From assembly GCF_963576675.1 (NCBI RefSeq), contig NC_088916.1, positions 20,064,501 to 20,128,500 on the forward strand: DNA of 64,000 nucleotides, read 5' to 3'. The notes under the pieces were generated by a model that saw only the letters and a program-made list of their open reading frames with translations, was not told the origin of the DNA and ran no database searches. Position 1 is the first letter of the stretch. Each line of letters begins with the position of its first letter. The stretch comes from Euphorbia lathyris (Eukaryota > Streptophyta > Magnoliopsida > Malpighiales > Euphorbiaceae). Shown in pieces: positions 21,244 through 63,020 of this stretch. The position numbers were made by a program, and so were the translations under genes.

Positions 21244-21244
21244 G

Positions 21245-22851: not shown

Positions 22852-23064
22852 ATGCGAAATCTCAGGAGTTAGGATCCTAGCTCACTAAAGGATTTGTGAA
22901 ATTCTTTGAATTAATATGGAGGGCTATTAATTTGGTAAAATAGTGGGAGCAATCTAAAATAAACTAAAAGGCCTATAATTTTAGATTGATATACTTTAAG
23001 CAAATGAATGACATACGTTTACTCTTTCTCACTCTCAGGTTTAATTAAACGCACTCTTAAAATC

Positions 23065-26979: not shown

Positions 26980-26981
26980 TC

Positions 26982-26993
26982 CAAGTGGGAGTA
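26982..26993 (+). other. Copia-2 polypurine tract
   Basis: aagtgggagta lies directly before the 3' LTR, the usual plus-strand priming site of copia elements. Confidence 0.75.
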
Positions 26994-28857: not shown

Positions 28858-28862
28858 GATAT

Positions 28863-36570: not shown

Positions 36571-38996
36571 CCCAACGACTTTGGGCGACGCCCAATTTTA
36601 CTTGGGCGTCGCCCAAAGTTCCGGGATCCGTTTCCCTATATAAGGGCACGGATCCCAATGCAAAAAAGGAGGAAGGATTTTTGGAGAGAGCTTTCTCACT
36701 CTAAACATTTTTAGAGAGAGAGAGTGAATTTTTTTGAGAAAAATATTTTTTTCTCTCAAAAATTCCACATTTCCTAAAGTTCAATTTTTACTAAATTTTC
36801 ATTAAAAACGGAAGATCGTGGTTCGTGGAATCAATCGGCTTCGACTGTCAGATACCGAATTTAAGGTATTATCCGAGGACTAGACTCTCTTTTATTTTAT
36901 TTTATTTATCTTCTTCTCCTATTTATTTTTATGTTATAGTTTTTATTTATTTAGTTATTTATTTATGTTGTCACATTTTATTTAATTAGCGTATTTATTT
37001 AATTTCCATTTCGTGTTGAATAAAATTCGGTTTTGTTTTAAAATAAAAAACCTCGTTTTGATATCCCAATACGAACCGTGATCCGATAAAAAGGTAGTTC
37101 GGGTATCGAAAACGTTGTAATTACAAGTTTTTAATTTAAAAGAAATTTCCAAATAATGATTTGAAATAAAAAACGTCGTTTAGGAACTTCCGTTTTCGAC
37201 TATGATCCATTTTTGGTAGTTCGGAAATCCAAAACGATTGAATTAGATTTAATTTAAAGCTTTCGAATAAATCCGGAGAATATTGGAGTGCTGCTGTAAT
37301 TTGTCATTTCTGTCACTAAATGTTGTTTACCGACGGATTTTCCGTCGGTAAATCTGCCAAAACGTAAAAGATGCCATTTCAGTCCCTTTTTCTTAACTTT
37401 TAAGCTTTCAATCCTTAATATATATATGTATAGTTATGTAATATATGTTTTTCAAATTATTTTAGACCTTTAGTATATGTAATTATTTTAGAATATTTGT
37501 ATGCTTTTTTATTATTATTCTATTTTACAATATAAGTATAAGTATATATATGTCTTTCTTTTTATTCATTTGGGCTCTATTAGATTCTATTTTGAAGATT
37601 ATTTACTTGGGTATTTTGGAAAATAATTAATATATATTAGTATATGTTACTTTTGATATTTAAAACGATAATAGATATGTATATATGTAGTTTTGGGATA
37701 TTTGGATTATTTTAGTGGTTATTGAAGGAAATTATTTTTGGATGAATATTATTTTCTTAGTTATAGGATTTACTTACTATTTTCACATTTTTAAAGTATA
37801 GATATATTGTACCTACTATTTTTATATACATATAGTTTCTTTTGTATAAACTTTTATTTTCTTATTCTATTTTTTGATTTAAATGTATATATATATATGC
37901 TAGAATTACTTTCTTTATTCCTTTGGACCATTCATGGGTCCATGTTTCAAATGGGCTTTATTTGAGTATGAGTCTTGGTTTAAATGGGTTTATTATTACA
38001 AGTATAATAGGTAGAGAGTCCATTAAATAAGAGAGGAAAATAAATCACAAAAAGAGAGCTTTCAATATAATTATTTAAACTAATGAATTTTTAGAGTTTC
38101 CTAATGTAAGTAAATAGAGTTGTTTTTGTTAACATTTCAAATCATTTCTCAAAACACCACGTCTTAAAACCTTAGTCCGTTCCAACGGCGGATTAAGCGA
38201 ACATTATAATTAAAATCGTTTTCTTTGTGAATAATAGAGTTTTAGAATCATTTTCTTAAAGGATTTGTACAACATGATATTGACTTGTATGTTTAACCAC
38301 GTTTTCTCATTAAAAGGTTCTTATCCTAACGTTTTCAAACACTCGAGTCGTTCCAACGGCGATTCGGGTAAAAATTCATCAAACGGGGTTTTAAAACGCA
38401 CCTAAATCGTTCCAATGGTGATTAAGGTGCGAACCGTGTAAATAAACTCGTTTTGGGAAAAATAAGTTAGTGTAGAATAAACACACAGCGTGACATATAA
38501 ATGAAGTTGTAAATAAATCACTTCTTTCTCCCCTTTCTCTGTGTATGTATAACATAAATGGGTGATTCTTTACTAGTATGGCTTTCCAATAATATATGCT
38601 CAAAACGGTTTCTGAAAAAAGAAAGAAAAGGGTTTCAAATGAATTTTAAACTTAAAGAAGTATACGATTAGTCCGTTATCGCCTAACATGCTGAGTAGGA
38701 GGCCGGTGGTTCATAACCGGGCGATGTCGGGGTGCCTAGTAGCCTTTCTCCGGAAAGGAGCTAGCCTTCTCGGCTCGTACCTAAGTTTCCCGAACCCACA
38801 CCGGTCTCCCGCAAGGGATCGGTGTTCATTTTCCCATTCGTGGGTGGCGACTCTTCCATATCTCCGAGCTCCGGTCCTGCCGAGCAGCTTGATTCCACGA
38901 TTGGTTGCTTTCGGCGCCAATCACCGCTTACGTCGCCATGAGGTTGTCCACCCCCCGGTCCGCCCGGGAGATTAGGCCGCGGCACCTCGTCTAACA
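36571..38996 (+). repeat. Tat element 5' LTR, truncated
   Basis: Matches 54054-56491 of the 3' LTR nearly base for base. The outer U3 part is missing and replaced by unrelated sequence to the left. The core promoter is retained: TATATAA at 36637-36643. It ends in CTAACA at 38996. Confidence 0.93.
36625..36657 (+). promoter_or_regulatory. Tat LTR core promoter: TATA box in a nested palindrome
   Basis: TATATAA (36637-36643) is at the centre of CCCTATATAAGGG, itself flanked by GGGATCCGT and ACGGATCCC. The same arrangement is at 54107-54140 in the 3' LTR. The LTR transcript should start about 30 bp downstream. Confidence 0.75.
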
Positions 38997-38998
38997 AG

Positions 38999-39015
38999 TG
39001 GCGACTCTGCTGGGG
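38999..39015 (+). other. Tat element primer binding site
   Basis: TGGCGACTCTGCTGGGG begins two bases behind the LTR. It is of the type used by Ogre-like elements, which I recall as complementary to an Arg tRNA; the tRNA assignment is from memory. Confidence 0.8.
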
Positions 39016-40939
39016 AAGCGAGAAATTTGATTCCGGAAGGCGTGTATTAAGCCCTTAACGGGGACGGATCGTTTTACTTCTTTTCGTATGCATTCATGTG
39101 CATTATTGCAAACCCTTTGGGTAATTTCCCCGAAACCTCTAGCGAGAGTCCATTCGTCGCTCGAAAGAGGCTAGTGTAAGTTCCCCCTTACAGTAAGGCG
39201 CCAAAGGGTCCCCATCCATTCGTTAGGGGCGAATTTGTGCGGTCCTGTGAGGTCCCGCGGTCAGCCGTGTCAGCATATAGTAGCCTTAGAAGTTTCCATA
39301 GGATCACCCGTTACTATTTTTGATGTGATAAATGAATCAGTTCGTGTTTTCAAACCGCCATAATACGTGTCTAATCCTAAAGTATGTAAAGAAAAATGAG
39401 ACGATGCGTTAATATATACTCATGAATCGACATACTAATTACCCTAAAACATCGAAACGATTTGAACTAAAGACGACTTAGTTATCTCGTATGAATGAAC
39501 ATGTGCGACCCGCCTTGTCCCTTTCGGTGTCCCGACGAAGGCACGTGTTCAGGAAATGCGTTATGACGTAAGCACGTAGTAGTATGAATCGGTTTGGTAT
39601 TAAGGATAATTACATCTCGATACAAAAGACTATATTAACAGTAGCCGTTATTCACATTCTTTAAATAAATTGGGATAAAACGAGATCAAGACGAAACGAA
39701 AACGAAGAACATTTTTGTCCTGAACGACCCTGTCATAACGTGAAAAGTTTCGCACAAGTAGCCCGTCCCTTCCGAATGAAAGACGAGCTTTTACGTTATG
39801 CCTCGTGTCGTTCTTAAGAGAAATGGATGTGTCCGTAAAGGTGACTAAGAAAATAAAAGAAAAGAAAAATGAACTAATCGACCAAAATCATTCCGAGACT
39901 ACGATATATATCAATCCCGAGGGTTGTTAAAGAAAATAAACCAATGTCGTTGAATACGTGCCTCGGACGAGTGTATACCCCGTTTAAAATCTCGAAGCCG
40001 AATTAAGCCAAACCATATAATTACGCCATATGGACGAGACTGCGGGTTTTGACTAACGACTCGATCATTTCGACCGTTACCAAAACTGCAAGAAATATGG
40101 CCCGATATACGTGTTTGCTTAAATTCGCGCCTAAAGGAAAGAAAACGGTGATATCCTCGCTTCGAACAAACACGCGATTTAACGAAAGGTTGGTTTTTTA
40201 TAACCACACTAAGAGGATATATCCCGTAGGATTGAGAAGAACAACGAACTGTTGCTAGCCGAAAGGTTACCGTGCGCTCAAAATAAGACTCGCCGTCTTT
40301 TCACGTAGCTAAAATGAGCAAACGGATCCTCGACGCTAAGAACAAACGCGTTACGCGATGAGTCCGTTCCCTAAAATAAAATCCAAAAGTGATTCCATCA
40401 CTAAATAAACACGTGGTTACGTCTCTCGATAGATCCAAAAGATCCCGTTGTAATCCAAAATCGAGACACGAACCCACACGAACAAAAGGGAACGAATCAT
40501 TGACAATAACGAACGATTAGACTAGAAGAATAACTCGTACCGCGTCTAAAAACTGAGATGCGCTCAAAGGGAGTCAAAACCCGAATTAATGCGTCTCGCG
40601 AAAGGACAAAAGACGAGTTATTCCGAAAGGACAATCCAACTTGGTCGATTTCTTAGTCACTGAACGTTGATGCGTCGAAAACGAACTGTGTTGTATGGTG
40701 AATGATTTATTTTTCCGCAATAATCGACGGCATCACGCGTCCCCTGGACTGCAATGTGAGCCCCAAACCAAAATCCTAGGAAAGAGACCTGGACCAACGA
40801 GTGTGTGGAGGAATAAGGGTGGAAGAGAGATGTTGTGATACATGTAATTAGACTAACGGTTGTTCTTCTTATCTTATAATCATAAATAAATAAACGCACA
40901 CACCACGAATCATGCATATAAAATCATGCATACATACTA
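39016..40939 (+). other. Tat element 5' leader
   Basis: About 1.9 kb between primer site and gag without a convincing ORF. It is rich in cga and aaacg strings. Ogre elements often carry an extra ORF here; none is seen. Confidence 0.6.
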
Positions 40940-42095
40940 ATGGATACCGTTCGCGCAGACGTCATCATTAAGCGGTTGTGGTTTCGCGAGAGTAATCGGC
41001 TTGTCAGAAAGTTTGATCAGCTACGAGTAGACAGTTCAGAATCAGTAGTTGTGGCTTCTGAATCATCTTCGTCTGGGTATACTCAGTCTTCCGTCAGTAT
41101 GTCTGCGACCAACGAGAAAGTGGCTGAATTGGAGAATTCTGTGAACAATATCAATGATCAGCTGGCCGCGATCTTGGCCCAGCTAGCGGAGTTAGCACTG
41201 AAGGACAACAAGAGTGGTAGTAAGCGTGCTGAGAATGAGGTGAACGATGGTCCTCGCTTTGGGAATGAGGAGGATTATCAGGATTATATCCGAAAACAGT
41301 TAGAGAAAGAGAAAGCTAAGGAAGAGGAGTGGAAGCAACACATCACACAGGAAGTGCAGGACTTGCGTGGAGGAAGTTCCGGGAGTCAGGACTTTTATAA
41401 CTTGAAAAATTGTTTATCGGCAACAGCTTTGCCTTTGAAATTCTGGCTCCCTGACATGAAAAATTTCGATGGAACGGGGGATCCCACCGCTCACATGAAT
41501 CAGTATGTTGCTGTGATGAAGCACACGATCCTGACTGAGGATCAAGTCCTAGGGCTGTTTAACACCTACCTAGAGGGGGCTGCCCTCACATGGTTCCATG
41601 CATTGCCGATGGTGACAAAGAGGGATTGGAAGGAGTTAGCGAAGTCATTCATCGCTCAGTATAGCTTTAACACCATGCTGGAGGTCACTTTGAAAGAGTT
41701 AGAGAGCACTAAGCAACAGGCTGGGGGAATCCTTTTCCGATTTTGTGAAAAGATGGAGGGCTAAGGCCGCAGTGATGAAACAAAAGCCGCTCGAGCAGGA
41801 TCAGATTCGAATGGTGGTCGGTAACACGTTGCCGTATATCAAAAATGAGTTGCGGTATATGCCATTTACGGATTTCAATCAGATGTATAGTTGCGCCTTG
41901 ACGATTGAAGGGGATGGAGAGCCGAAGAAAGCTTATACCAAGTGGACGAAGTCAGGATATAGTGTCGGAGGGCCTAGTGCGAGTACGGAATCCGCAGCAG
42001 TGAAAGTGCTTGATCTTAATGCTATTGAAAAGAGGTAGTTCGCCAAGTTCGATCAGACTTACGCAAAAGTTTTTGAGCGTCTGCAGAAAAAGGGA
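40940..42095 (+). pseudogene. Tat gag (first gag domain) with frameshift and stop
   Basis: Opens with ATG 40940. A coiled-coil-like stretch (about residues 50-95) precedes a retrotransposon gag domain at 41450-41690 with FDGTGDPTAHM, GAALTWF and RDW. A one-base deletion near 41745 (overlapping frames 41745-41764) moves the reading into the next frame (KRWRAKAA), which continues to a TAG at 42036-42038, where CAG is likely ancestral. The same frame then runs straight into the long ORF behind. Gag forms the particle and binds RNA. Confidence 0.88.
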
Positions 42096-45000
42096 TTGTT
42101 GAAAGCCCTTACCCCGTATAACAAAGCTCAACCTACTCCGCAGATACAGGGTAGAGGGTATTGTGAATTCCATAGCAGTTATGGGCATACAATTGAGAAT
42201 TGTGAGAGGCTGAAACACGAAATCCAGGATTTAATCGAGGAGAAAAAGATAGCTGATCCTTCGTCAGCAAACCCTTCCACTAGGCGTAATCCATTGCCTA
42301 ATCATAGGGTGAGCATGATCGGAGTTGGTTTGACAGAATGTGTAGTGATGGAATCCTTCGAGGAGAACGTAGAGGAGTTGTTGGACTCCGATGAGAAGAA
42401 TAATGTGGGAAATGGTTTGTATGTGTCGGCTTTGGAAGAGGAGCCAACGGAAGAAGTGATGGATGATAGAACTGAAACTGAGGAGACCGAGGAAGTCTCA
42501 TCTCGGAGGATCATGCCTGTGTTGAAATTGTTTAGTGGGGTAGAAGACCCCGAAGCTCATTTGTATGGATACGTGTGTGCTATGTTTGGAGAGCCATACA
42601 AAGTGGAAGAGGTCGCTCCATGGTTCCATCTTTCGCTGGTGGGCGAACCTTTGAAGTGGTTTCAATCGCTACCTGACGCGACTAAGCATGATTGGTCACT
42701 GGTGTCAAGCTTGTTTTTGATGAAGTATCGAAGAGACAAAATACGGGCAGGGGAATATAGCGCAATGCAAATTGGGCCTATCAAACGTCCGTTTTCGACT
42801 GTCAGCAAGTATAATGAAGGGAAGGACCCCATGGAGCACTTGCATTTTTATCTGTCGGCTATGGGTCCTCTAGGTTTCAAAGAGGGGGAGATCACGAGCT
42901 TGTTTTGCAACTCACTGGCAGGAGAGTCACTAGTGTGGTACATGTCTCTTCCAATGCACGTTAAAGCAGATTGGGCAAAAATGACTAAGAGATTCATCAA
43001 GAAATACGCCGCACGGGAATGTCCAGAGGAAATGCCTGCATTATCCAAAGAGGAGACACCTGAAGCAGTAACAGCCATGTCTAAGTATAAAGGAGATGAG
43101 AACCCCATTGATCACATAAACCATTTCCGTGCCTACATGTTTGACGCGGGACTCTACCGAAGTGAGTTAGTCCAGCATTTTCCAAAGACACTCATAGGAG
43201 AAGCTTTGATGTGGCACCGAATGCTCGCGGCAAAGACAAAAGGGGACTGGGGATCCCTCATGGAGGCCTTTGTGCAGAGGTATGAGAGGTACATTCCGTG
43301 GACAGGGTCGGTGGAAGATTTAGAAAGGATCAGGCAATTCCCCGAGGAACCATTTGTGGATTATGCTAGAAGATGGAGGTTCAAGTATGCCTCGTGTCGG
43401 GTCACCTTGAGTGATCAGGAGCAACTCATGTGCATCCGGAAGGGTGCTATTCCACTCGTGGCTAGAAGAATGAATGGAGTGTTCCTCAAGGACTATGAAG
43501 AACTGATAGGCTGGGCTCGGTATGGATCGTCGAACCCTTCCTACATAAATCCGAATGTCCCTCACATAATGGATCTGATGGTCGTGGACGTTTGGGGAAG
43601 TTCCTCCGACGAGGAAGGTATCAATCAGAGGGTTCCGATCAACATCTGGGATGAGTCTGATGATGAGTCGGAAGTGGCTGTTAGCACAGAAGGGAAGATT
43701 CTGCCGGGGTTCGAAATCTTCAATGATGTTGCCGACTGGGGCAAAGAAAAGGTGAGCTGCTTTGTCGAGGAGATTATGGTGCTAGACTTGAATGCCGAGG
43801 AGCAAGTCATCACCATTGAAGCAACTGCAGGAGCGGGAGATGAGCCTAGTACCTCCAAAATTCATGAGGAGCCCGAGAACCCTGATGATGAAAATTGTAT
43901 TACTGCTTTGTTTGAATCAGATGATGTAATCACCCATGCTATCAATGAAATGAATTCTGATTTTGCTTACTTGCTTGATGTTGATCATGATCATTCCATG
44001 CATTCTCATTCATATAACATGCCTACATTTGAAATCAATACGATAGAAATGTCAACTTTCAATCTTGGTACGGATGAAAATCCTAAATTTATACAAATTG
44101 CTCAAGCATTAACTATTGAAGAGAGAAAAGAATTTGAGAGAATAATTAAAAAATACGAAATTGTATTCGCTTGGACATACGAAGACATGCCTGGAATTGA
44201 TCAATCTATCGTAACTCACCGCATTCCAACTTATCCCGAAGCAAAGCCCGTAAAGCAGAAGCTCCGATGTATGAGTTCCGAATGGGCAGATAAGATCAGA
44301 GAGGAGGTGAAGAAGCAGTTAGAAGCAGGATTCATCGAAGTGATCGACTATCCCCCTTGGGTCGCAAATGTGGTACCAATTGCGAAGAAGGACGGCAAAG
44401 TGAGGATGTGCGTCGATTACAGAGATCTTAACAAGGCATGCCCTAAGGATGAGTTCGCATTGCCTCATATCGACGTATTGATCGACAGTGAAGCGTCAAG
44501 TGTATTACACACGAATGTGGATGGTTTCATGGGCTACATGCAAGTTCAGATGGCCGAAAAGCACAAAGCAAAAACCTCGTTCACAACTGAGTGGGGGACA
44601 TACTGTTACAGAGTAATGCCGTTTGGGTTGAAAAATGCCGGGGCAACTTATCAGAGAATGGCCACAGCATTGTTCCACGATATGATACACAAGGAGGTAG
44701 AAGTCTATGTGGACGATATGATGGTCAAATCAGAGACAAGAGAATGGCATTTTGCCGCGCTCGAGAAGTTTTTGGCCCGAATTGCAGAATTCAAGCTAAG
44801 GTTAAACCTGAAGAAGTGCTTTTTCGGCGTTTTGTCGGGGAAAATATTAGGCTATGTAATCGGAAATAAGGGAATCAAGGTTTATCCTGATAAAGTGAAG
44901 GCTATACAGGAGATGTCGGCGCCGAAAAATGAGAAAGAAGTGAGAGGGTTTCTGGGGCAGGTTCAATATATCAGTCGGTTCATAGCGCGACTCACCGCAA

Positions 45001-46820
45001 TCTGCGAGCCAATCTTTAAGTTGTTAAGGAAAGACCAACCCACCATCTGGAATGATAAGTGTCAACAAGCTTTGGAGAGCGTCCGGAACTATTTGTCTAA
45101 TCCGCCAGTGTTGAGACCGCCTAAGCTAGGGAAGCCGCTTCTCCTCTATGTAGCGATCGAGGAGCGATCTATTGGGGAAATGTTGGCTCAAGAGGGAGAC
45201 ACCGGTGTGGAGCACGCGGTGTATTATTTGAGTAAGAAGTTCCTGGAGTACGAGCTCAAGTACAACATGATCGAAAAGACATGTGTGGCAGTAGTATGGT
45301 TGACAAAGAAACTACGGCATTATTTTCAATCGTATAAAGTGATCATTATTTCTCGGATGGACCCCGTGAAGTATTTGTACCGAACTCCATCCTTGACGGG
45401 GAAGTTAGCCCGATGGTTGTTGCTTCTGTCCGAGTTTGACATTGAATATGTGACGAAGAAGGTTATCAAAGGAAGGGCCGTGGCAGAGTTTCTGGCTAAC
45501 CAACCCTTGAATGCAGAAGAGGAAGAAGTAAGCTATGATTTCCCCGATGAGCACTTGAACGCAATCGAAGTTATACCGTGGAAAATGTTCTTCGATGGAG
45601 CAGTTAATTCGAATGGAGCCGGAGTAGGAGTACTACTTACCTCACCGGAAGGAGAAAGGATCCCGATGGCCAAGAAGTTATCCTTCCCTCTCACTAATAA
45701 TATGGCCGAATATGAAGCGTGCATTTATGGTTTAGAGTCATTAGCGGTATTGGGAGCATCATATGTCGAAATTTGGGGTGACTCCAAGTTGATCATCGAA
45801 CAGGCACAAGGAAACTGGGAAGTGAGGGAAGAAAGGCTACGTCCATATCTAGATCAGCTAGAAGGGTTGGCACAAAGATTCAAGGAGTGTCGTTTCTATC
45901 ACATTCCTCGAGCGCAGAACCAGGCGGCGGATGCTTTGGCCACTTTGGTGTCAGTTTGGGACAACCCCTGGAACCTTGCCTCGAAACCGTTGGTATTAAG
46001 GAGATCTCACAAACCATGCTACGAGGACGTAATACTGTTAGGGGCAGATGAAAAACCGTGGTATTTCGATATCGTGAACTTCATGAAAAATGGAACATAT
46101 CCGGCAGAGTCAGAACCGAGGGATCAAGCAGTGATTAGAAGGTTAGCTCGGCAGTTCGTCATCCACGATGACTTACTTTACAAAAGGCACATCGATGGGT
46201 TACAGCTAAGGTGCTTAGATGCGAGAGAAGCCCGCGAGGCGATGGAATCGGTGCATTCAGGAATTTGCGGGGCCCATATAGGAGGAGCGGTGTTAGCAAA
46301 GAAAATCATAAGGCAAGGCTTCTACTGGCTCACCATGGAAAGAGATTGTAACGAGTATGCAAAGAAATGCCATGATTGTCAAATCCACGGCGATTGCAGT
46401 CATCTTCCGGCCATGGAACTACATGTGCTAGCACCTATTTGGCCATTCGCTGCTTGGAGCATTAACATCATCGGCAAAGTAAGGCCTAACGCTTCAAATG
46501 GACATAAGTTTATTGCTGTCGCCATCGATTATTTCACCAAGTGGGTAGAAGCAGAGTCGTTTAGTAAACTGGGATCCAAGCAGATGAGAAAGTTCATTGA
46601 AAAACACTTGATCACCAGGTTCGGAGTGCCTCATCACATGATTACAGATAATGGGGTCCAGTTTCAGGGGGAAGTAAGAAATCTTTTCCGAGAATATGGC
46701 ATTGAACATCACAGGTCTTCTCCATACCGTCCACAGGCTAATGGAGCAGTAGAAGCAGCTAATAAGAACCTTAAGAGGATTCTCGTAAAAAACGGTGGAA
46801 TCACATCGGAATTGGCATGA
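42039..46820 (+). CDS. Tat polyprotein: three further gag-like domains, RT, two RNases H, integrase
   Basis: One open frame of about 1590 codons. Order: knuckle-like CEFHSSYGHTIENC (about 42160), acidic linker, gag-like domain 2 (about 42500-42740), 3 (42797-43010) and 4 (43077-43530), a long acidic linker, RT (44150-44870, YVDDMMV), the RT-linked RNase H (45100-45480), an archaeal-type RNase H (45580-45960: FFDGA, MAEYEA, WGDSKL, ADALA), integrase zinc finger (46245-46385) and integrase core (46440-46800, TDNGVQF). Tat elements normally have an aspartic protease between gag and RT; no D-S/T-G protease motif is found in that stretch. The first catalytic Asp of integrase is Asn (WSINIIG). A frameshift near 46795 detaches the integrase C-terminus. 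Confidence 0.9.
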   Translation, partial: FAKFDQTYAKVFERLQKKGLLKALTPYNKAQPTPQIQGRGYCEFHSSYGHTIENCERLKHEIQDLIEEKKIADPSSANPSTRRNPLPNHRVSMIGVGLTECVVMESFEENVEELLDSDEKNNVGNGLYVSALEEEPTEEVMDDRTETEETEEVSSRRIMPVLKLFSGVEDPEAHLYGYVCAMFGEPYKVEEVAPWFHLSLVGEPLKWFQSLPDATKHDWSLVSSLFLMKYRRDKIRAGEYSAMQIGPIKRPFSTVSKYNEGKDPMEHLHFYLSAMGPLGFKEGEITSLFCNSLAGESLVWYMSLPMHVKADWAKMTKRFIKKYAARECPEEMPALSKEETPEAVTAMSKYKGDENPIDHINHFRAYMFDAGLYRSELVQHFPKTLIGEALMWHRMLAAKTKGDWGSLMEAFVQRYERYIPWTGSVEDLERIRQFPEEPFVDYARRWRFKYASCRVTLSDQEQLMCIRKGAIPLVARRMNGVFLKDYEELIGWARYGSSNPSYINPNVPHIMDLMVVDVWGSSSDEEGINQRVPINIWDESDDESEVAVSTEGKILPGFEIFNDVADWGKEKVSCFVEEIMVLDLNAEEQVITIEATAGAGDEPSTSKIHEEPENPDDENCITALFESDDVITHAINEMNSDFAYLLDVDHDHSMHSHSYNMPTFEINTIEMSTFNLGTDENPKFIQIAQALTIEERKEFERIIKKYEIVFAWTYEDMPGIDQSIVTHRIPTYPEAKPVKQKLRCMSSEWADKIREEVKKQLEAGFIEVIDYPPWVANVVPIAKKDGKVRMCVDYRDLNKACPKDEFALPHIDVLIDSEASSVLHTNVDGFMGYMQVQMAEKHKAKTSFTTEWGTYCYRVMPFGLKNAGATYQRMATALFHDMIHKEVEVYVDDMMVKSETREWHFAALEKFLARIAEFKLRLNLKKCFFGVLSGKILGYVIGNKGIKVYPDKVKAIQEMSAPKNEKEVRGFLGQVQYISRFIARLTAICEPIFKLLRKDQPTIWNDKCQQALESVRNYLSNPPVLRPPKLGKPLLLYVAIEERSIGEMLAQEGDTGVEHAVYYLSKKFLEYELKYNMIEKTCVAVVWLTKKLRHYFQSYKVIIISRMDPVKYLYRTPSLTGKLARWLLLLSEFDIEYVTKKVIKGRAVAEFLANQPLNAEEEEVSYDFPDEHLNAIEVIPWKMFFDGAVNSNGAGVGVLLTSPEGERIPMAKKLSFPLTNNMAEYEACIYGLESLAVLGASYVEIWGDSKLIIEQAQGNWEVREERLRPYLDQLEGLAQRFKECRFYHIPRAQNQAADALATLVSVWDNPWNLASKPLVLRRSHKPCYEDVILLGADEKPWYFDIVNFMKNGTYPAESEPRDQAVIRRLARQFVIHDDLLYKRHIDGLQLRCLDAREAREAMESVHSGICGAHIGGAVLAKKIIRQGFYWLTMERDCNEYAKKCHDCQIHGDCSHLPAMELHVLAPIWPFAAWSINIIGKVRPNASNGHKFIAVAIDYFTKWVEAESFSKLGSKQMRKFIEKHLITRFGVPHHMITDNGVQFQGEVRNLFREYGIEHHRSSPYRPQANGAVEAANKNLKRILVKNGGITSELA

Positions 46821-47304
46821 GCAGCTCCCACTCGCATTATGGGCTTATCGCACGACAATTAGAACCTCAACTGGGGCAACACCATTCTCTTTGGTGTATG
46901 GAACAGAAGCAGTCTTGCCGATTGAGATCGAAAAGCGATCGTTGAGAATCGCAGTGGAGGCAGAAATTCCCGAGGCGGAATGGGCGAAGAAGCGATGTGA
47001 GCAGTTGGCTCTAGTTGACGAAAAAAGGATGGAAGCGCTTTACCATGTACAGTTATATCAAAGAAGGATGGCTCGGGCTTTCAATAAAAAGGTCAAGACC
47101 AGTCCTATCAAAGAAGGAGATTTGGTGCTGAAACAGATCCGTGTGACGCACACCGACCCGAGGGGGAAGTTCAGGCCTAACTGGGAAGGACCATTCGTCG
47201 TGAAGAAGATACTAAGCAAAGGAGCGGTGAAGTTAACCACAATGGACGGCATGGAATTCTCCGAACCTACCAACCTGGATAGGCTTAAGAAATACTTTTC
47301 GTAA
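46795..47304 (+). pseudogene. Tat integrase C-terminal part (shifted frame)
   Basis: Continues integrase after a one-base shift beside an A-run at about 46787: WHEQLPLALWAYRTTIRTST through the chromo-less C-terminal domain (NWEGPFVVKK) to TAA at 47302-47304. The sequence is typical of Tat integrases and shows no other break. Confidence 0.9.
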
Positions 47305-47804
47305 AAAAAAAAAAATAAAGAAAAATAAAGAAAAATTCCCGATAGGTTGAAAACCCGCAAAGGGCGACCTATGCAACAATAAGGGAAATCCCAATGGGTG
47401 AAAACCCGAAAGGGCACTCATTTAAAAATTCCGAGATAGTAAAAGGAGAGGAGAAAAATCGCTGGGATCCGAAAACCGAAAGGCGGGTCTTGGTAACAAT
47501 AGTTATGACTTGAGCAATTACAAAAACAATGTATAAGAGACTAAGTATTTCTGTTGTTTGTAAATAAATAAAGGCATGAATATATTTGACGAGAATGATT
47601 GGAATCATCATAATCTACTGAATGCATGGTAATATGAATCACGAGTTATACATTTCCTATCCTACTTTTCACAAAAAGCCTACCTACTATCCACCCCACT
47701 CCCTATACATCAGCTATACATCGGGGAAACTCTAATAAAAGCTACAAAGCAATAATGAAAGCTACAAAGCAATAATGAAAGCTACAAAGCAATACATAAC
47801 GAGC
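47305..47804 (+). repeat. Post-integrase spacer with repeated hairpins and a 20-bp repeat
   Basis: At 47345-47480 three related units read gaaaacccgcaaagggc, gaaaacccgaaagggc and gaaaaccgaaaggcggg. The second contains GGGT-GAAA-ACCC, a stem with a GNRA-type loop. At 47737-47795 a 20-bp unit (gctacaaagcaataatgaaa) is present in three tandem copies just behind the stop of the antisense gene, in its probable 3' untranslated region. Confidence 0.7.
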
Positions 47805-50081
47805 CTAATACGGAGGGAAGTCCCAATAGTCCTCAAAATCTCTCAGGTGTGATGCCCGCTCCGCAGATAGTGCCTCCTCGGCAGCACGCGCTCTCTCATC
47901 AGAAACTCGCGCTCTCTCATCAGAGGCGCGTGCTCTCTCATCAGCAGCTCGTGCTCTCTCCTCTGCAGCAAGGCGCCTGATCGACTCATCACGCGCCCTC
48001 TCCTCGACGGCAAGGCGACCCTCAGTCTCCCGTCGCATCATCCCTGACCAGTGATCATTTCTCTCCTGATACACCTGACCAACCCGGGCGTCGGCCTCCC
48101 GCACCAACTCACTCTGCCTCCGCTCGTGGGCATGAAGATCACTCTACAGAAAAAGAAAAAAAAAAGAACAGATAAAAAGCAGCATAGGCCAAAAACATAA
48201 ATCATACATACATGCATACATTCCACTACACTAAAGTAAAGTAATGATACATACCAGGTGATCGGTGCAGCGCAAGCTGAGGCGATCTCGTAGGTAACCA
48301 CACAGCCCCACATAATCCGTACAAGTCTCCCTCGTGGTCAGAGAAGCGTCTGAGGGATCAAATGGGACCCTCGAGGAGAAGATAGGAGGAGCCGCCTCGA
48401 ATCCCGCATAAGCTGCCCCGGACTCGTCATAGCAAATCGTGGCATAATCTCTCCCGTAGTCTGGTAGGGGCACGCCTAGGGAAGACCTCTCCGGTCGGGC
48501 AGCGCTGGAGGACTCGCCGACGTAGTAGGGCTGCTCACACACAGGCGTCTGAGCTCGAGTACCATCAAATAAATCAGATAAATGGGCACTCCTCCAGGAC
48601 CCCTCCTGCCAAAAAAAACACACAATAAAAACCCCTAAACATCTCATGAATGAAAGGTAAAATAAGAAGGGGGTGGAACCACTTACCGGGATCTCCTCCT
48701 CACCGAAGACTGCCGCGATAGCCTCCCTCGAAAATACATCTGCCACCGGATCCACCTCCATCGCTGCCGTCGGGGCATCCCTCGCGCTCAGCAGAGTAGA
48801 TAAGTAAGGCTCACGGCCCCCGGCGTGAATCCACACCGCTCTACCAACAAACCGACGGGTCAAGTCCCGACGAACGGTCGATAAGGGCATGGTCCGCACC
48901 GCGAACATAGAGACGGGGATCTCACCCGGTGTCCAATGAGCATCCCTAACTCCAGTGATGCCTCGATCCCCTAAATACCATGCCCGCACGCAGGGGCCGG
49001 TGAGCACACACTGCTGCTCCTAGATCATCGATACATATGTATAATCGGGGCCGAAGTCGAGGTCGTCCCACCTGAACTTAATCTAAAAAATGCACAAAGA
49101 GAAAGTCAGAAAGACTCAAACAAAAACCGAGCATGATTAGGCAAAATCTACCTGTGTGAGGGTCAGCGAGTTGATCCAATCTAGGAGCCGTGGCACCGTC
49201 CGACTCCTTTCGGCGCTTAAGTCAAAATCCCTCCATCGAGTCATGAAAGGCGGCCTCGGTACTCTCGGTCGAGATCGAGACCGGCTGGGAAGGATGTGCC
49301 TCTCATACGCCCACACCTGCGGTAAAAACAAGGACTAGGAGTGTGAAAAACGCAAAGAAGATAAGACGAGCAAGTCAAGAAGGCGTCACGTACCAGCAGA
49401 GCAAAGGTGTAACCACCGAAATCCTTGCGCTTCCGGCAAGTCAGATCCAAAAACTTGTAGAGAAAGGCTAAGCCTGCCCCTGCCCAATCGTAGGAAGCCG
49501 CTGCATCCAAATCGCTGAGTGCCTGAATGAGACCCGCATGTACCTTTCCACCCTTCGTGCGGAAAATCGTCTCACTCAGAGTATACACTAAGAAGCTGCG
49601 AACCGCCAAGTCGGTATCGTCTGTCTCGCAGAAATCTCGTCGACTCAAGAGGCTCGCGGTGGAAATAAACTTCGCTGGAGTAGATTTGGCGCAAAGACGA
49701 ACTCCCGGTCCAATCAAGGCAGCGAGCCTAGCAAGGTCGACCCGTGGTCGCATCATATCGAAATGGAAAGGGACGGGAGTGTTGCTCCCTCGTAACCCTG
49801 TCAGCAGTGAGAAATCTCTGGGCGAGATGGTCATCTCCCCAAAAGAAAGGTGGAAGGTGTGGGTCGAGTCAACCCACCGCTCACATAAGGCCCGTAGGCC
49901 GAAACGATCGCATACCCCGTTGGTGTGGGGCAACGCTGCAATAAAAGGCTCGAAGCCCAACTCGCGCACGCGGGCTCTCGCCGCGGCACCTAGCCTATCG
50001 TACCACGAGTGAATCTCGGCGGTGGTCCCCGAAATCTCAATGAACTAAAAAGAACAAGACAAGAAAATTTAAATACAGCTT

Positions 50082-51568
50082 TGTTGAGCGATTTCCGCAA
50101 GTGCACGATTTCGCTTGTAGTAATAAAAATATCGATCCCACAGAGATACGTTTTTTAACGAAAAACTTATTTTTGAATCTTTAATTTCGAACTTGTTAGA
50201 TTTATAAAATGTAAATAAAAAGTGAAAATTGGATTAATTGAATTTAGGAAATTTATTTGATTGAATTTGAAAACTTTGAGTATTTGAAAATGCTGGAATA
50301 AGATTATATATTTAGAATAAATCGATTGTTAGAAAGATCTTCTGATTTTAAGGATGAATTTTACAAAACAGGAACATTTAGAACTTATTAGAAAAATGAA
50401 TGAATTTGTTCATTTGCATTAAGCAAAGAAAATAACTTAAACTTTGTATTATTATGATGATGAAATAAATGACGGAACCTCTAATTAATTGGCTTTGAAC
50501 GCGACAAAACCCTTTCGGGATAGTTGCCCTTACTCAAATTAACACTCTTTCGAGATGATAATTTGCCTAAGTGTTCAACAAAGTTTCCTTATAATGATTT
50601 TGAATTCAAGTGCATATTAATGAAAACACCAGCCTCACTTATATTGGATTGGTTACCATAAGTGCTGCATAACGATTTGTCGAATAGAACGGACTTTATT
50701 AGATGAAATGTAAATTGATACAAGTTTACAGAGAATAAGGAGCATTGAGTTCTTCGAGGGCGTGCAAGTGAAGGGCTTGATCGGTTCCGCTTCCTTGGGT
50801 TTCCTAGGAGGTTGTCAGGCTCGGGGGCGAACACTTTACTCAATCTTCTCGCTGTAACTTCGTAATAGGGATTCGGTCGGCCACTACCATGATGCAAACT
50901 AAAACTGGAACAATGTCTAAACGCTACTGAGTTGTAATTAAACTATAAACAATATGTGTACCTCATCTTGTTTTGTACAGAATCTAATTTCTAACTCTCG
51001 AAATGTTTTTACTTAGAACTTCGACATAAGTTCTACGCTCTGATTTCTATATCTATATTGAAGTGATGTATCCGTTGGTTAAGAGTCGTGTCCGTTGTGA
51101 AAGGACGTCTTTATCCACTTGAACGAACGCGTTTCTTGGATTTTCAGCATGTGTTAAATGCTCTTGGTGAATTTCTGCACTTATCGAGGATAGTAATCCG
51201 CGGCCGTGAATGACGTAGCACTGAGCTTGAGCGACGGACGAAGGGGAGAATTGGTTGTACCGCGCGTGTCGCGGCCGCGGGTCTGGGATCCACTGTCGCG
51301 TCCCGGCAGGTTTTCTTACTTCTTGCTTTCGTTCGTGTCCTCGACTTGGCGCTTTCGATTTACGTTGTCTTTGACTCCTTTTGTAGGGCTTTTCTTCTGT
51401 TTTAGATCCTTTTTCGTTCCTATTTGGATTTTACCAAATATTCAAGTACCTTGCAAGAAAGAAAGATATTCGAAAGTAAAAGTAATCTAAACAGATATAA
51501 ATAACACAAATTCGTAATAAAAATGATGTAAATGTTAATGATATTTTAGGTATATTTTGGGCTTAACA
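50082..51568 (-). mobile_element. Solo LTR of an Athila-like element in intron 1
   Basis: 1487 bp, TG...CA ended, flanked by AGCTT (50077-50081) and AGCTC (51569-51573), a 5-bp duplication with one change. Its minus strand matches the LTR at 61481-63014 from the first bases (TGTTAAGCCCAAAATATACC) to the last (GCGAAATC... to CTCAACA). No internal region is present, so it arose by recombination between LTRs. It enlarges intron 1 of the antisense gene. Confidence 0.88.
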
Positions 51569-51739
51569 AGCTCCTAAAGCATGCAATTGATAAGAACGCG
51601 TTAAGACTAGGTATCTTTCATAGAGACATCCGGTCAGTTAGGACCAATTTTCTGTAAAAATCTCTCCTGTAGGGTCATTCACGTAGGGTTTAGTCAATTC
51701 TTTAATCCACCATCGTCTGCGGGGACGAGGAGCATAGAT

Positions 51740-51960
51740 TAGGTTTTACTATTTACGTGCATTAGTTAAGTTTTTACTATTCACGTTTTTACTATTCACG
51801 TGTATTAGCTAAGTTTTTACTATTCACGTGCATTAGTTAAGTTTTTACTATTCATGTGCACTATTCACGTTTTTACTATTCACGTGCATTAGTTAAGTTT
51901 TTACTATTCACGTGCATTAGCTAAGTTTTTACTATTCACGTCTTCACTATGCACGTTGTT
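51740..51960. repeat. 28-bp tandem repeats with G-boxes
   Basis: About seven partly broken copies of a unit reading ttttactattcacgtgcatt. Four copies keep a perfect CACGTG. They lie in intron 1 of the antisense gene, about 400 bp behind its start. CACGTG is the core of plant G-boxes bound by bZIP and bHLH factors; regulatory use is inferred. Confidence 0.8.
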
Positions 51961-52371
51961 TGTACCGTTAGCATGCATAAATTTGTAGTGTCACTATTCA
52001 CATGCATATAGCGCGCATTCTTACAAAAATAAACAGGTGTTACTTGTGAATAAAGGAATTCACGTTTTCTAGCTAAAGTCCTCTAAGGCAGTCTAAGGGT
52101 TAGCATGCAAATCATGTTCGGATAGGAATGCTAAAGCCTAGAGTTCGAATCAAATAAAAGTGAGAAATTACTTACCTCGTTGTAGCGTGTCCTGCTCAAA
52201 TGCGTCGTAGGGTCGTGGAAGGTATCCACTCTATCCAGGTTTACGTAAACCTCGTCCATGCCTCTAGTGCCATCCCATTCATCTAAATCCATCCCGAGAA
52301 TAATCCAAATTGAAGTCTAGTGAGAGAAAGAAGAGAGAGAAGGGGTGGGGTTGAAATGAAACCCCACCACC

Positions 52372-52378
52372 TTATATA
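52372..52378 (-). promoter_or_regulatory. TATA box of the antisense gene
   Basis: TATATAA on the minus strand, 80 bp before the ATG at 52292. The distance allows a start site about 30 bp on and a short 5' untranslated leader. It is independent of the LTR promoter. Confidence 0.65.
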
Positions 52379-52729
52379 GGAAGAGGGAATGGCATTCCCG
52401 TAAATAGTGAAAAAGGTACGATTTGACATAAAGGTAAAAAGTAAATAATTAATTACTAGGTGCACAGACCTCCGATTGGCAGTCCGTTTCAGCCTGCATT
52501 TCTCCCAGACAACGACCAACATTGCCAAGATATGAACTCCAGACAACAGTCAATTTTTACAGAACAGTGATACCAGTCAAAATACAGATGACAGTCAACA
52601 GAAAAACGATCATTAGTCTATATCATTTCAGACTAAAACACATTCCCATTGAACTTCCGAGATGATAGCTCCAGTAAGAAGATACAAACAATGGTGTCGT
52701 AAGAAAATAAAGAAACAATCCCAGCTTTT
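52379..52729. other. Upstream region of the antisense gene
   Basis: Non-coding. Several short acagtcaa and ccagacaac strings recur between 52490 and 52620. No ORF of its own. Confidence 0.5.
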
Positions 52730-53119
52730 GAGCCATCTGACTCACGGTCGCAGACCGGAGTTGCTTTTGAGCCATCTGACTCACGGTCGCAGACCGGAGT
52801 TGCTTTTGAGCCATCTGACTCACGATCGCAGACCGGAGTTGCTTTTGAGACATTTGACTCACGGTCGTAGACCGGAGTTGCTTTTGAGCCATCTGACTCA
52901 CGGTCGCAGACCGGAGTTGCTTTTGAGCCATCTGACTCACGGTCGCAGACCGGAGTTGCTTTTGAGCCATATGACTCACGGTCGCAGACCGAAGTTGCTT
53001 TTGAGCCATCTAACTCTCGGTCGCAGACCGGAGTTGCTTTTGAGCCATCTTACTCAAGGTCGCAGACCTGAGTTGCTTTTGAGCCATTTTACCCGCGGTC
53101 GTGGACCAGGGTCGCTTTG
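52730..53119. repeat. 39-bp minisatellite, open on both strands
   Basis: Ten tandem 39-bp units (gagccatctgactcacggtc then gcagaccggagttgctttt), with degenerate copies continuing to about 53190. Because 39 is a multiple of three and the unit lacks stops, both strands read 13-residue repeats (SHLTHGRRPELLL on plus, MAQKQLRSATVSQ on minus). Variable tandem repeats in the 3' untranslated part of Tat/Ogre elements are known and can seed satellites. Coding use is unlikely. Confidence 0.9.
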
Positions 53120-53407
53120 ACCTGAGTTGCTTTTGAGCCATCCCATTAACGGTCGTACACCGAAATTGCTTTTGAGCCATTCTTACCCATAACCAACGTA
53201 CGTTAGATTTCGAGAAAAGAACATCCATCGACGGCCACTCCAAAGGTGACGATGGAAGGAATCAGAGGACGACACCGGAACGCGCAGCGCGAAGGTCAGG
53301 TATGCTCCCTCCTACTCTTTACGTGTCTTTTACTTTTATATGTTTTACATTGCATGTGTTATGTTAGCAAAAAACGTTTTCGAAACACACACATCACTGT
53401 CAAAATA

Positions 53408-53423
53408 GAAAAGTAGGGGCAAC
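53408..53423 (+). other. Tat element polypurine tract
   Basis: gaaaagtaggggcaac directly precedes the 3' LTR start TGTAGACA at 53424. This is the usual plus-strand priming site. Confidence 0.85.
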
Positions 53424-56400
53424 TGTAGACACTGAGTCGGAGGACCTGTGACGAAAACCTGAAAACAAGACGGTTGAAGCGATTGATTCCGGAAGTTTTG
53501 AAAAACAAAAAAATATAAAGAATAATAAACGTATAATAAGGAAAGAAAATTACGGCGGGTCGCTGTTGCCGGTAAGGTGGCTCGCGTATGCTTAGCGGCA
53601 TGGCGCAGGTGCTTAGTGGCATCCGGCGCGCGGTCGACAATGGTCGAACGCCCGTTCGACGGCACAGGACGTGCGCTCGGCGTCCGTCGGACGCACGCGT
53701 CCAACCACGAGTGGCACATTCTCGACGTCCGAGCAACGCCTGAGTCTGATAGCGCGGGGCACGCTCTCGTTGGCCACTGAGCGTGCGCGCCCGGCAGCGC
53801 GGAGCGCGCATTCGGCGGCCGCAACGTGTGAGCGTCCGACGGTGCGGAATGTGCGCTCGGCGGCCGTGGGGCGCGCGCGCTCGACAGCGCGAGGCACGCC
53901 TCGGGGGTCGTCGGGCGGGTGCCCAACCACGTCGGGCAAACGCCCAACGAGCGTTGGGCGATCGCCCAACAAATGTTGGGCGGTAGCCCAACTTAGTGTT
54001 GGGCGGCCGCCCAACAAGCCTTGGGCGGCCGCCCAACAAGCCTTGGGCGGCCGCCCAACGACTTTGGGCGACGCCCAATTTTACTTGGGCGTCGCCCAAA
54101 GTTCCGGGATCCGTTTCCCTATATAAGGGCACGGATCCCAATGCAAAAAAGGAGGAAGGATTTTTGGAGAGAGCTTTCTCACTCTAAACATTTTTAGAGA
54201 GAGAGTGAATTTTTTTTAGAAAAATATTTTTTTCTCTCAAAAATTCCAAATTTCCTAACGTTCAATTTTTACTAAATTTTCATTAAAAACGGAAGATCGT
54301 GGTTCGTGGAATCAATCGGCTTCGACTGTCAGATACCGAATTTAAGGTATTATCCGAGGACTAGACTCTCTTTTATTTTATTTTATTTATCTTCTTCTCC
54401 TATTTATTTTTATGTTATAGTTTTTATTTATTTAGTTATTTATTTATTTAGTTATTTATTTATGTTGTCACATTTTATTTAATTAGCGTATTTATTTAAT
54501 TTCCATTTTGTGTTGAATAAAATTCGGTTTTGTTTTAAAATAAAAAACCTCGTTTTGATATCCCAATACGAACCGTGATCCGATAAAAAGGTAGTTCGGG
54601 TATCGAAAACGTTGTAATTACAAGTTTTTAATTTAAAAGAAATTTCCAAATAATGATTTGAAATAAAAAACGTCGTTTAGGAACTTCCGTTTTCGACTAT
54701 GATCCATTTTTGGTAGTTCGGAAATCCAAAACGATTGAATTAGATTTAATTTAAAGCTTTCGAATAAATCCGGAGAATATTGGAGTGCTGCTGTAATTTG
54801 TCATTTCTGTCTCTAAATGCTGTTTACCGACGGATTTTTCGTCGGTAAATCTGCCAAAACGTAAAAGATGCCATTTCAGTCCCTTTTTCTTAACTTTTAA
54901 GCTTTCAATCCTTAATATATATATGTATAGTTATGTAATATATGTTTTTCAAATTATTTTAGACCTTTAGTATATGTAATTATTTTAGAATATTTGTATG
55001 CTTTTTTATTATTATTCTATTTTACAATATAAGTATAAGTATATATATGTCTTTCTTTTTATTCATTTGAGCTCTATTAGATTCTATTTTGAAGATTATT
55101 TACTTGGGTATTTTGGAAAATAATTAATATATATTAGTATATGTTACTTTTGATATTTAAAACTATAATAGATATGTATATATGTAATTTTGGGATATTT
55201 GAATTATTTTAGTGGTTATTGAAGGAAATTATTTTTGGATGAATATTATTTTCTTAGTTATAGGATTTACTTACTATTTTCACATTTTTAAAGTATAGAT
55301 ATATTGTACCTACTATTTTTATATACATATAGTTTCTTTTGTATAAACTTTTATTTTCTTATTCTATTTTTTGATTTAAATGTATATATATATGCTAGAA
55401 TTACTTTCTTTATTCCTTTGGACCATTCATGGGTCCATGTTTCAAATGGGCTTTATTTGAGTATGAGTCTTGGTTTAAATGAGTTTATTATTACAAGTAT
55501 AATAGGTAGAGAGTCCATTAAATAAGAGAGGAAAATAAATCACAAAAAGAGAGCTTTCAATATAATTATTTAAACTAATGAATTTTTAGAGTTTCCTAAT
55601 GTAAGTAAATAGAGTTGTTTTTGTTAACATTTCAAATCATTTCTCAAAACACCACGTCTTAAAACCTTAGTCCGTTCCAACGGCGGATTAAGCGAACATT
55701 ATAATTAAAATCGTTTTCTTTGTGAATAATAGAGTTTTAGAATCATTTTCTTAAAGGATTTGTACAACATGATATTGACTTGTATGTTTAACCACGTTTT
55801 CTCATTAAAAGGTTCTTATCCTAACGTTTTCAAACACTCGAGTCGTTCCAACGGCGATTCGGGTAAAAATTCATCAAACGGGGTTTTAAAACGCACCTAA
55901 ATCGTTCCAACGGTGATTAAGGTGCGAACCGTGTAAATAAACTCGTTTTGGGGAAAATAAGTTAGTGTAGAATAAACACACAGCGTGACATGTAAATGAA
56001 GTTGTAAATAAATCACTTCTTTCTCCCATTTCTCTGTGTATGTATAACATAAATGGGTGATTCTTTACTAGTATGGCTTTCCAATAATATATGCTCAAAA
56101 CGGTTTCTGAAAAAAGAAAGAAAAGGGTTTCAAATGAATTTTAAACTTAAAGAAGTATACGATTAGTCCGTTATCGCCTAACATGCTGAGTAGGAGGCCG
56201 GTGGTTCATAACCGGGCGATGTCGGGGTGCCTAGTAGCCTTTCTCCGGAAAGGAGCTAGCCTTCTCGGCTCGTACCTAAGTTTCCCAAACCCACACCGGT
56301 CTCCCGCAAGGGATCGGTGTTCATTTTCCCATTCGTGGGTGGCGACTCTTCCATATCTCCGAGCTCTGGTCCTGCCGAGCAGCTTGATTCCACGATTGGT

Positions 56401-56491
56401 TGCTTTCGGCGCCAATCACCGTTTACGTCGCCATGAGGTTGTCCACCCCCCGGTTCGCCCGGGAGATTAGGCCGCGGCACCTCGTCTAACA
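53424..56491 (+). repeat. Tat element 3' LTR, complete
   Basis: 3068 bp from TGTAGACA to CTAACA. The first 630 bp (U3) are very GC-rich, with degenerate repeats of about 45 bp (agcgcg...cgctcggcggcc) at 53560-53930 and a cluster of palindromes at 53930-54100. TATATAA is at 54120-54126. From 54054 on it matches the truncated 5' LTR. Open frames inside are by-products of GC-rich repeats, not genes. Confidence 0.93.
53930..54100. repeat. Palindrome cluster ttgggcggccgcccaa before the LTR TATA box
   Basis: Eight or so units of the form cccaac-n-ttgggcgnncgcccaa. Three carry a perfect 16-bp palindrome with GCGGCCGC at the centre; others have variants (gcgatcgc, gcgacgc). They end about 20-40 bp before the TATA palindrome. 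They could form hairpins or bind a dimeric factor. Confidence 0.8.
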
Positions 56492-57581: not shown

Positions 57582-58153
57582 TTCTATGTGAAAAATTGAA
57601 TGTTGAGTGATTGCCATGCTGAGTGAATTCAAAAATTAGTAACTACTACATACTGAGCTTAAAATGTAGAAAATCACTCTATGCTAAGTTAATGTACATG
57701 TTGAGTGATTATCCTGAGTAAATACACATGCTGAGTGATCACTCTATGCTGAGTAGATATACATGCTGAGTGATTATCCTATGCTAAGTTACTAAGAGAT
57801 AAGAAATTCATCTACGTAGAACCAGGTACTCAGTATCACAAATGCTTCGAACTCTAGTAAAACTGAGTAAAACCTACTTGCACCATTAAATGCTAACACA
57901 TGTAATAAATAGCACCTAGGATAACGTAAGCAATAATGGCAAAACCCATGCGCCGAACGTGTCATAAATGACAGAATCTCTGTCGATTGAACATCCCAAG
58001 GAAAAATGGCTAGTCCAACGAATAGGATCGATTTAAATCTCTACAAATAGTGGAAGATTTCCCACTTAATCATCTTTACACTTGAATCCTTTGGCATTCC
58101 AATCTTTGTCTCTCTCTGAATTTCAAAATCCCTCGAAAATCTCTGAGAAGAAA
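57582..58153 (+). other. Sirevirus-2 spacer between pol and extra ORF
   Basis: Non-coding. Units like acatgctgagtgat recur at least five times between 57600 and 57790, ending in a segment (atgctgagtagatatacatg and on to gttactaag) that aligns with Sirevirus-1 near 19190-19260. Probably untranslated leader of the extra ORF. Confidence 0.65.
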
Positions 58154-63014: not shown

Positions 63015-63020
63015 AGTTTT

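What the first reader, a model, noticed from the sequence alone, without database searches (positions are those of the whole stretch)
40940..43540. Four gag-like domains in series in a Tat/Ogre retrotransposon, and no protease
Seen: the pattern (F/Y)xGxxxPxxH(L/I/M)xx(Y/F), then GExLxW(F/Y/H), then DW occurs four times (41450, 42520, 42797, 43077), each with similar spacing. The copies differ strongly from each other, so they are not a recent tandem duplication. Domains 2-4 are in one frame with RT and occupy the place where Tat elements normally have the aspartic protease; no DSG/DTG-type protease motif is found there. Inference: either a non-autonomous lineage whose capsid is built from a multi-gag fusion and matured by a protease in trans, or a lineage that replaced proteolysis by another strategy. 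The long open frame argues that it was functional until recently.
Basis: partly seen in the sequence, partly recalled or inferred. Interest (0 to 1): 0.88.

Follow-up and report, generated by a model that had tools for sequence, protein, structure and literature searches.

The report
Retrotransposon with capsid repeats replacing protease
A plant jumping gene of the Tat group carries four diverged copies of its capsid (shell) domain, three of them sitting where its protein-cutting enzyme should be; a relative with the same order exists in a spurge and a similar swap is seen in beech, so such elements may be able to persist without a maturation protease of their own.

Summary
A gag profile made only from other plant elements finds four capsid domains in the window and nothing else in six frames; 900 shuffles of the three extra domains reach at most 9.2 bits, the real ones 34-45. 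Domain 2 models as a capsid N-lobe, domain 4 as N-lobe plus C-lobe; domain 3 was not modelled well. A Tat-protease profile that finds 62 of 124 relatives (48 of them its training set) finds nothing in the window. The layout is not unique: one Euphorbia lathyris gene model has the same order at 68-89% identity outside a gapped domain 3. The extra domains lie nearest the element's own gag, suggesting internal duplication. Unexpectedly, Fagus sylvatica models of another Tat lineage have a second capsid N-lobe in the same place and no detectable protease; separate origins are likely but not proven. The LTRs are 98.4% identical: a recent insertion, now with broken gag and integrase. Most likely a protease-deficient Tat lineage, matured in trans or working uncleaved, its polymerase held in the particle by extra capsid domains. 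Architecture well supported; mechanism inferred.

The parts
36571..38996 (+). 5' LTR, lacking about its first 630 bases (upstream sequence is unrelated)
   Evidence: 98.36% identical to 54054-56491 over 2442 columns, 20 mismatches; 3' LTR starts earlier
38999..39016 (+). putative primer binding site TGGCGACTCTGCTGGGGA; likeness to tRNA-Arg sites of Ogre is recalled, not tested
   Evidence: sequence just after the LTR
40940..41764 (+). gag N-terminal part with capsid domain 1 (N-lobe about 41431-41700); frame lost near 41.72 kb
   Evidence: ORF; Retrotrans_gag E 7.9e-6; own profile 2.2e-21
41703..42035 (+). capsid domain 1, C-lobe part, in another frame, ending at a stop at 42036
   Evidence: ORF; contiguous with the N-lobe and zinc knuckle in E. 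lathyris P0002, so intact gag copies exist
42162..42203 (+). zinc knuckle (CEFHSSYGHTIENC)
   Evidence: read from the ORF; matches knuckle regions of P0025, P0027, P0104, P0118
42492..42770 (+). capsid domain 2 (N-lobe only)
42771..43031 (+). capsid domain 3 (N-lobe only)
   Evidence: own profile 1.7e-10; 38% identical to domain 2; no confident model
43032..43541 (+). capsid domain 4 (N-lobe and C-lobe)
43542..44099 (+). acidic linker before RT; aligns with the linker of P0017, without its protease and G-patch part
   Evidence: 29.7% over 138 columns, E 7e-13
44379..45437 (+). reverse transcriptase (44379-44861) and RNase H (45129-45437)
   Evidence: RVT_1 4.8e-27, RT_RNaseH 6.5e-24
45591..45944 (+). 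second, archaeal-type RNase H (aRH), hallmark of the Tat clade
   Evidence: RVT_3 4.2e-22
46221..47301 (+). integrase (H2C2 46221-46385, core 46443-46733, C-terminal part in another frame from 46789); the core lacks its first catalytic acidic residue
   Evidence: Pfam; ORFs; compared by eye with P0001 and P0042
49244..50044 (-). antisense extra ORF with plant mobile domain
   Evidence: PF10536 E 3.2e-21
53424..56491 (+). 3' LTR (start inferred from TG after polypurine GAAAAGTAGGGG 53408-53419)
   Evidence: sequence; pair with the 5' LTR from 54054 on

Best explanation
It is a Tat-clade (Ty3/gypsy) LTR retrotransposon from a lineage in which the protease and G-patch stretch between the nucleocapsid zinc knuckle and reverse transcriptase was lost and three diverged copies of the lineage's own capsid domain (N-lobe, N-lobe, N+C-lobe) stand in its place. 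Shown: the domains, their order, the absence of a detectable protease, a second copy of the order in Euphorbia lathyris, and a PR-bearing nearest RT relative. Inferred: the extra lobes dock the RT-RNase H-integrase part of the polyprotein into a particle built by Gag (its own or that of a co-resident Tat element), so that packaging no longer depends on an exact Gag/Gag-Pol balance; processing is done in trans by the protease of a co-resident Tat/Ogre element, or partly dispensed with. The lineage would thus be non-autonomous for protease.
For: Four capsid domains by an independent profile with shuffle controls and capsid folds for domains 2 and 4. No protease in six frames of the window by a profile that finds 62 of 124 relatives, 14 outside its training set. 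The same order gag C-lobe, knuckle, d2, d3 (part), d4, linker, integrase in E. lathyris P0001. Replacements between the window and P0001 are more conservative than random single-base changes in d4 (p 0.0004) and d2 (p 0.0098), which fits selection on the extra domains. The nearest RT relative P0017 (99/94 support) keeps the C-terminal part of the protease (E 1.5e-13) and a G-patch, so the loss is younger than that split. LTR identity 98.36%: copied long after the protease was lost. A PR-bearing Tat element that could help in trans, P0118, lives in E. lathyris. In the set of 47 gag-bearing models, extra gag domains occur only in 4, and none of these 4 has a detectable Tat protease.
Against: Nothing here shows function. 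Only one other model (P0001) carries the array, it is a gene model with a 34-residue gap in d3 and no RT of this lineage, and it runs on into an unrelated gypsy element. P0002-P0004 end at or soon after the knuckle region, before domain 2, and do not bear on the array. The conservative-replacement result is uncorrected for 9 tests: d4 survives a Bonferroni correction, d2 does not; knuckle, integrase and linker parts show no excess. Tree positions of the extra domains involve long branches; in the leave-one-out tree domain 4 is almost as near to a Vitis gag as to its own (4.28 against 4.35). Missing protease in gene models is not rare by itself: 5 of 41 single-gag models with RT also lack it. 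The host genome could not be searched, so copy number and intact copies are unknown.
Confidence: 0.5

Rival explanations
1. The lineage needs no protease at all: the multi-capsid Gag-Pol assembles and reverse-transcribes uncleaved, the capsid string replacing proteolytic release.
For: Protease absent from the window copy and undetected in E. lathyris P0001 and three Fagus models, with extra capsid domains in the same place in both.
Against: No experiment; the survey passages seen state that cleavage by PROT releases the mature proteins needed for replication (PMC6317226). PR-bearing Tat elements co-exist in E. lathyris (P0118), so trans supply is simpler.
Confidence: 0.2
2. The capsid array is an interfering parasite: spare capsid lobes enter and poison or hijack particles of autonomous Tat elements, as gag-derived restriction factors do elsewhere (recalled; the Ty1-derived factor Drt2 appears among fold matches).
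For: Lobes without their C-terminal partner (d2, d3) are what a capsid decoy would look like; PR-bearing hosts co-exist.
Against: The lineage keeps RT, two RNase H domains and integrase, more than a pure decoy needs.
Confidence: 0.1
3. A decayed, non-functional chimera: the array is a relic of unequal recombination with no role, carried along by trans mobilisation.
For: Window gag and integrase are broken; P0001 is also a relic joined to another element.
Against: Same order in two diverged copies, open frame through d2-d4 and RT, conservative changes in d4, recent insertion, parallel in Fagus.
Confidence: 0.15
4. A protease is present but too diverged, or on another RNA of the same family, for my profile to see.
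For: Gag and protease are the most variable domains in plant elements (PMC6317226 passage).
Against: The profile finds 14 relatives outside its training set, including partial proteases and the closest RT relative P0017; the space between knuckle and RT is filled by identified capsid domains and a linker that aligns to P0017's linker.
Confidence: 0.05

Closest known systems
Tat clade (Ogre, Retand, TatI-III) of plant Ty3/gypsy LTR retrotransposons
   Same: Order gag, RT, RNase H, aRH, integrase; antisense extra ORF between pol and 3' LTR; RT 55-61% identical to Tat-type relatives
   Different: Three additional capsid domains and no protease or G-patch; ordinary relatives have one gag domain, and 36 of 47 gag-bearing models in my set show a Tat protease
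Non-autonomous Retand clusters (PMC11963269, abstract and passages seen)
   Same: Lineages amplified while lacking a standard domain
   Different: The passage lists 7 clusters without GAG, 2 without GAG and protease, 1 without RNase H and integrase; none is described as lacking protease alone or gaining capsid domains
Fagus sylvatica Tat elements P0102, P0104, P0124
   Same: Second capsid N-lobe between zinc knuckles and RT linker and no detectable protease
   Different: One extra domain, not three, nearest to Fagus's own gag; RT in another part of the Tat tree
Arc/dArc, PEG10, RSV and Ty1 capsids
   Same: Fold of domains 2 and 4
   Different: No tandem capsid string joined to RT is among the matches listed

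Membership tests
Tat clade of plant Ty3/gypsy | gypsy domain order, RT-RNase H before integrase | tested here: met
   Pfam order in ORF 42039-46820
Tat clade of plant Ty3/gypsy | second (archaeal-type) RNase H, the feature that sets Tat apart (PMC6317226 passage) | tested here: met
   RVT_3 4.2e-22 beside RT_RNaseH 6.5e-24
Tat clade of plant Ty3/gypsy | RT falls among Tat-type elements | tested here: met
   RT tree, 38 rows: sister to P0017 99/94, inside a 14-row group 90/99; Tat label of the relatives rests on their aRH domain
Tat clade of plant Ty3/gypsy | primer binding site type and target site duplication length of a subclade | not tested
   5' LTR end is missing, so no target duplication; PBS not compared with tRNAs
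Autonomous LTR retrotransposon | aspartic protease among the five polyprotein domains (PMC6317226 passage) | tested here: not met
   no hit better than E 3.8 in six frames; no Pfam protease in gag-pol
Autonomous LTR retrotransposon | intact gag and integrase in this copy | tested here: not met
   frame changes and a stop in gag, frame change and lost catalytic residue in integrase
Retrotransposon/retroviral capsid (CA) domain, for domain 2 | sequence profile match and N-lobe fold | tested here: met
Retrotransposon/retroviral capsid (CA) domain, for domain 3 | sequence profile match and N-lobe fold | tested here: inconclusive
   profile 1.7e-10, but no confident model: parts under pLDDT 50
Retrotransposon/retroviral capsid (CA) domain, for domain 4 | sequence profile match, N- and C-lobe fold | tested here: met

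The most novel reading that the evidence does not exclude
Replacement of the protease by extra copies of the element's own capsid domain is a repeatable evolutionary route in Tat retrotransposons: at least twice (Euphorbia and Fagus lineages) a maturation protease was exchanged for tandem capsid lobes, giving elements that assemble with, and reverse-transcribe inside, particles without proteolytic maturation.
Probability: 0.2. Interest if true: 0.85.

Novelty: new variant of a known kind. Interest (0 to 1): 0.62.

Why it matters
Proteolytic maturation is treated as a fixed step of the LTR retrotransposon and retrovirus cycle. A lineage that lost its protease, kept RT, RNase H and integrase, gained capsid domains under apparent constraint, and still inserted recently would make it testable whether capsid tethering can stand in for cleavage, or whether such elements live on another element's protease. 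The Fagus parallel suggests the exchange may not be a one-off.

Tried and rejected
Artefact or single-copy recombination: rejected as sole explanation because E. lathyris P0001 has the same order. Recent tandem duplication: rejected, 28-38% identity between domains. Capture of gag domains from foreign elements: disfavoured, since domains 2-4 group with the lineage's own gag (97/94), but long branches meet, and with one extra domain kept at a time the support weakens, domain 4 being almost a tie. One common origin of the Euphorbia and Fagus extra domains: not formally rejected (AU p 0.086; p 0.090 for Fagus d2 within the Euphorbia set); RT positions make two origins likelier. Protease hidden elsewhere: six-frame profile scan negative; a simple D-S/T/G-G motif scan of ORFs of 60 aa or more in 38997-53428 printed no match.

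Led nowhere: PDB sequence search with domains 2-4 (two weak poxvirus hits, E 0.36 and 0.38); viral contigs (3 pattern matches, no relative); tRNA scan (0 genes); my first motif pattern had the wrong spacing, corrected. The host genome search was asked six times and not answered, so copies in the host were not counted. One search ended in a script error after its four clade questions; the leave-out part was redone in another form. A possible repeat of VLDLNA after domains 1 and 4 (7 of 11 residues, E 0.83) is too weak to use.

Literature: seven searches and passages of two papers; no listing title or abstract start, and no passage seen, describes tandem gag domains in place of a protease. Subscription papers are mostly not in that library.

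Rows dropped: the gag tree used 39 of 57 domain rows; 6 too short, 12 removed by hand (10 near-duplicates, one foreign gag, one truncated Fagus second domain). The RT tree used 38 of 121 rows after an 85% identity cut, with chosen rows kept. One search listed 120 of 3886 hits.

Full report
What is there. The window holds a long LTR retrotransposon at 36571-56491. The two LTRs pair over 36571-38996 and 54054-56491 at 98.36% identity, 20 mismatches in 2442 columns. The 3' LTR appears to begin earlier, at 53424, with TG after a purine tract, so the 5' LTR lacks about 630 bases at its outer end; no target duplication was found. At a recalled rate of 1.3e-8 substitutions per site and year the LTR difference means roughly 0.3 million years. 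Gag-pol runs from 40940 to about 47301. RT, RNase H, a second archaeal-type RNase H, the integrase zinc finger and integrase core are all above Pfam's cut-offs. An antisense ORF downstream carries a plant mobile domain.

The protease. Pfam is no test here, because the Pfam column for the 120 listed relatives shows no retropepsin family even for full-length ordinary elements. I therefore built a profile from 48 relatives around their protease motif. It matches 62 of 124 fetched proteins at E 0.001 or better, 14 of them not in training, and nothing in 1416 six-frame pieces of the window (best E 3.8). Among 47 gag-bearing models 36 have a protease. The 11 without are P0001; the gag-only models P0002 and P0003; five single-gag legume-type models with RT (P0054, P0071, P0076, P0080, P0084); and three Fagus models. 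So a missing protease in a gene model is weak evidence by itself; in the window it rests on DNA.

Not unique. Searching with residues 150-690 of the ORF found one protein among 3008 candidates, E. lathyris P0001. Piece by piece it matches gag C-lobe 78%, knuckle part 68%, domain 2 75%, domain 3 48% with a 34-residue gap, domain 4 77%, linker 79%, integrase 88-89%. It is a gene model over a relic, missing RT of this lineage and running into an unrelated gypsy element with its own protease. A second search, by length class, gave P0002-P0004, also E. lathyris, which carry gag and knuckle parts but end before domain 2. P0002 shows an unbroken gag, so intact gag copies exist. Whether the window itself is E. 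lathyris or a near relative was not settled.

Constraint. Lacking the E. lathyris DNA, I asked whether residue differences between window and P0001 are more conservative than random single-base changes in the window's codons. They are in domain 4 (p 0.0004) and domain 2 (p 0.0098), not clearly in gag C-lobe (0.09) or linker (0.11), and not in the knuckle part (0.57) or integrase (0.37); domain 3 could not be tested. With nine tests in that call only domain 4 survives a Bonferroni correction.

Origin. In a tree of 39 gag domains, domains 2-4 group with the lineage's own gag (97/94), and a Fagus second domain groups with Fagus gag (97/90); the program warns of long branches. With one extra domain kept at a time, domains 2 and 3 stay nearest their own gag, domain 4 is nearly tied with a Vitis gag, and Fagus d2 stays nearest Fagus gag without a starred group. 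One clade of all extra domains costs 13 log units, AU p 0.086, so it is not formally rejected. In the RT tree the window is sister to P0017 (99/94) and then P0042 (96/81), inside a 14-row group (90/99) holding PR-bearing elements; Fagus RT lies outside it near ordinary PR-bearing elements including E. lathyris P0118. P0017 keeps the end of a protease and a G-patch, and its linker aligns with the window's. The simplest reading is loss of protease and G-patch, with gag duplication, after the split from P0017, and a separate similar event in Fagus.

Fagus. P0104 has a full gag at 119-207 and a second N-lobe at 616-696 (E 5.8e-19 by the independent profile); P0102 has a cut second domain (1.6e-12); in P0124 it is not significant by that profile, though the iterated profile saw a fragment. 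None of the three has a protease hit. They are near-identical copies of one family, so they count as one case, and hidden introns cannot be excluded.

How it may work. Inferred: extra capsid lobes tie RT and integrase to the particle lattice; cleavage comes from another Tat element or is dispensed with. The recent insertion, set against the deep divergence of the domains, says copies moved long after the protease was gone, by whatever means. This copy itself is now broken in gag and integrase; with under 1% LTR difference, a few lesions after insertion would be enough (estimate by inference).

What is known. PMC6317226 (passages seen) gives five standard domains, protease included, found in nearly all polyproteins surveyed, and aRH as the mark of Tat. 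PMC11963269 (abstract and passages seen) lists Retand clusters lacking GAG, GAG plus protease, or RNase H plus integrase. My seven searches showed no report of tandem gag domains in place of a protease. I rate this a new variant of a known kind.

Noticed in passing
49244-50044 (-): Antisense ORF inside the element with a plant mobile domain (PF10536, E 3.2e-21); an accessory gene of unknown role in this lineage.
   Followed up: partly
50081-50998 and 62152-63015 (inverted): 79% identical inverted stretch shared by the element's antisense region and a neighbour at 57-63 kb whose ORF 58070-59872 has Transposase_32.
   Followed up: no
13966-35057 and 19400-28858: Two LTR-like pairs (97.0% and 96.8% identical), one nested in the other, with copia-type domains inside and a Transposase_32 ORF at 16945-18858 on the minus strand.
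   Followed up: no
53909-54078: GC-rich, nearly palindromic tandem repeat (unit CGTTGGGCGGCCGCCCAACAAG) in the 3' LTR, near where the 5' LTR is cut off.
   Followed up: no
52724-53101: Tandem array of about ten 39-base units just upstream of the 3' LTR.
   Followed up: no
288-908 and 2815-4260: Parts of host genes for a cytochrome P450 and a UDP-glycosyltransferase.
   Followed up: no
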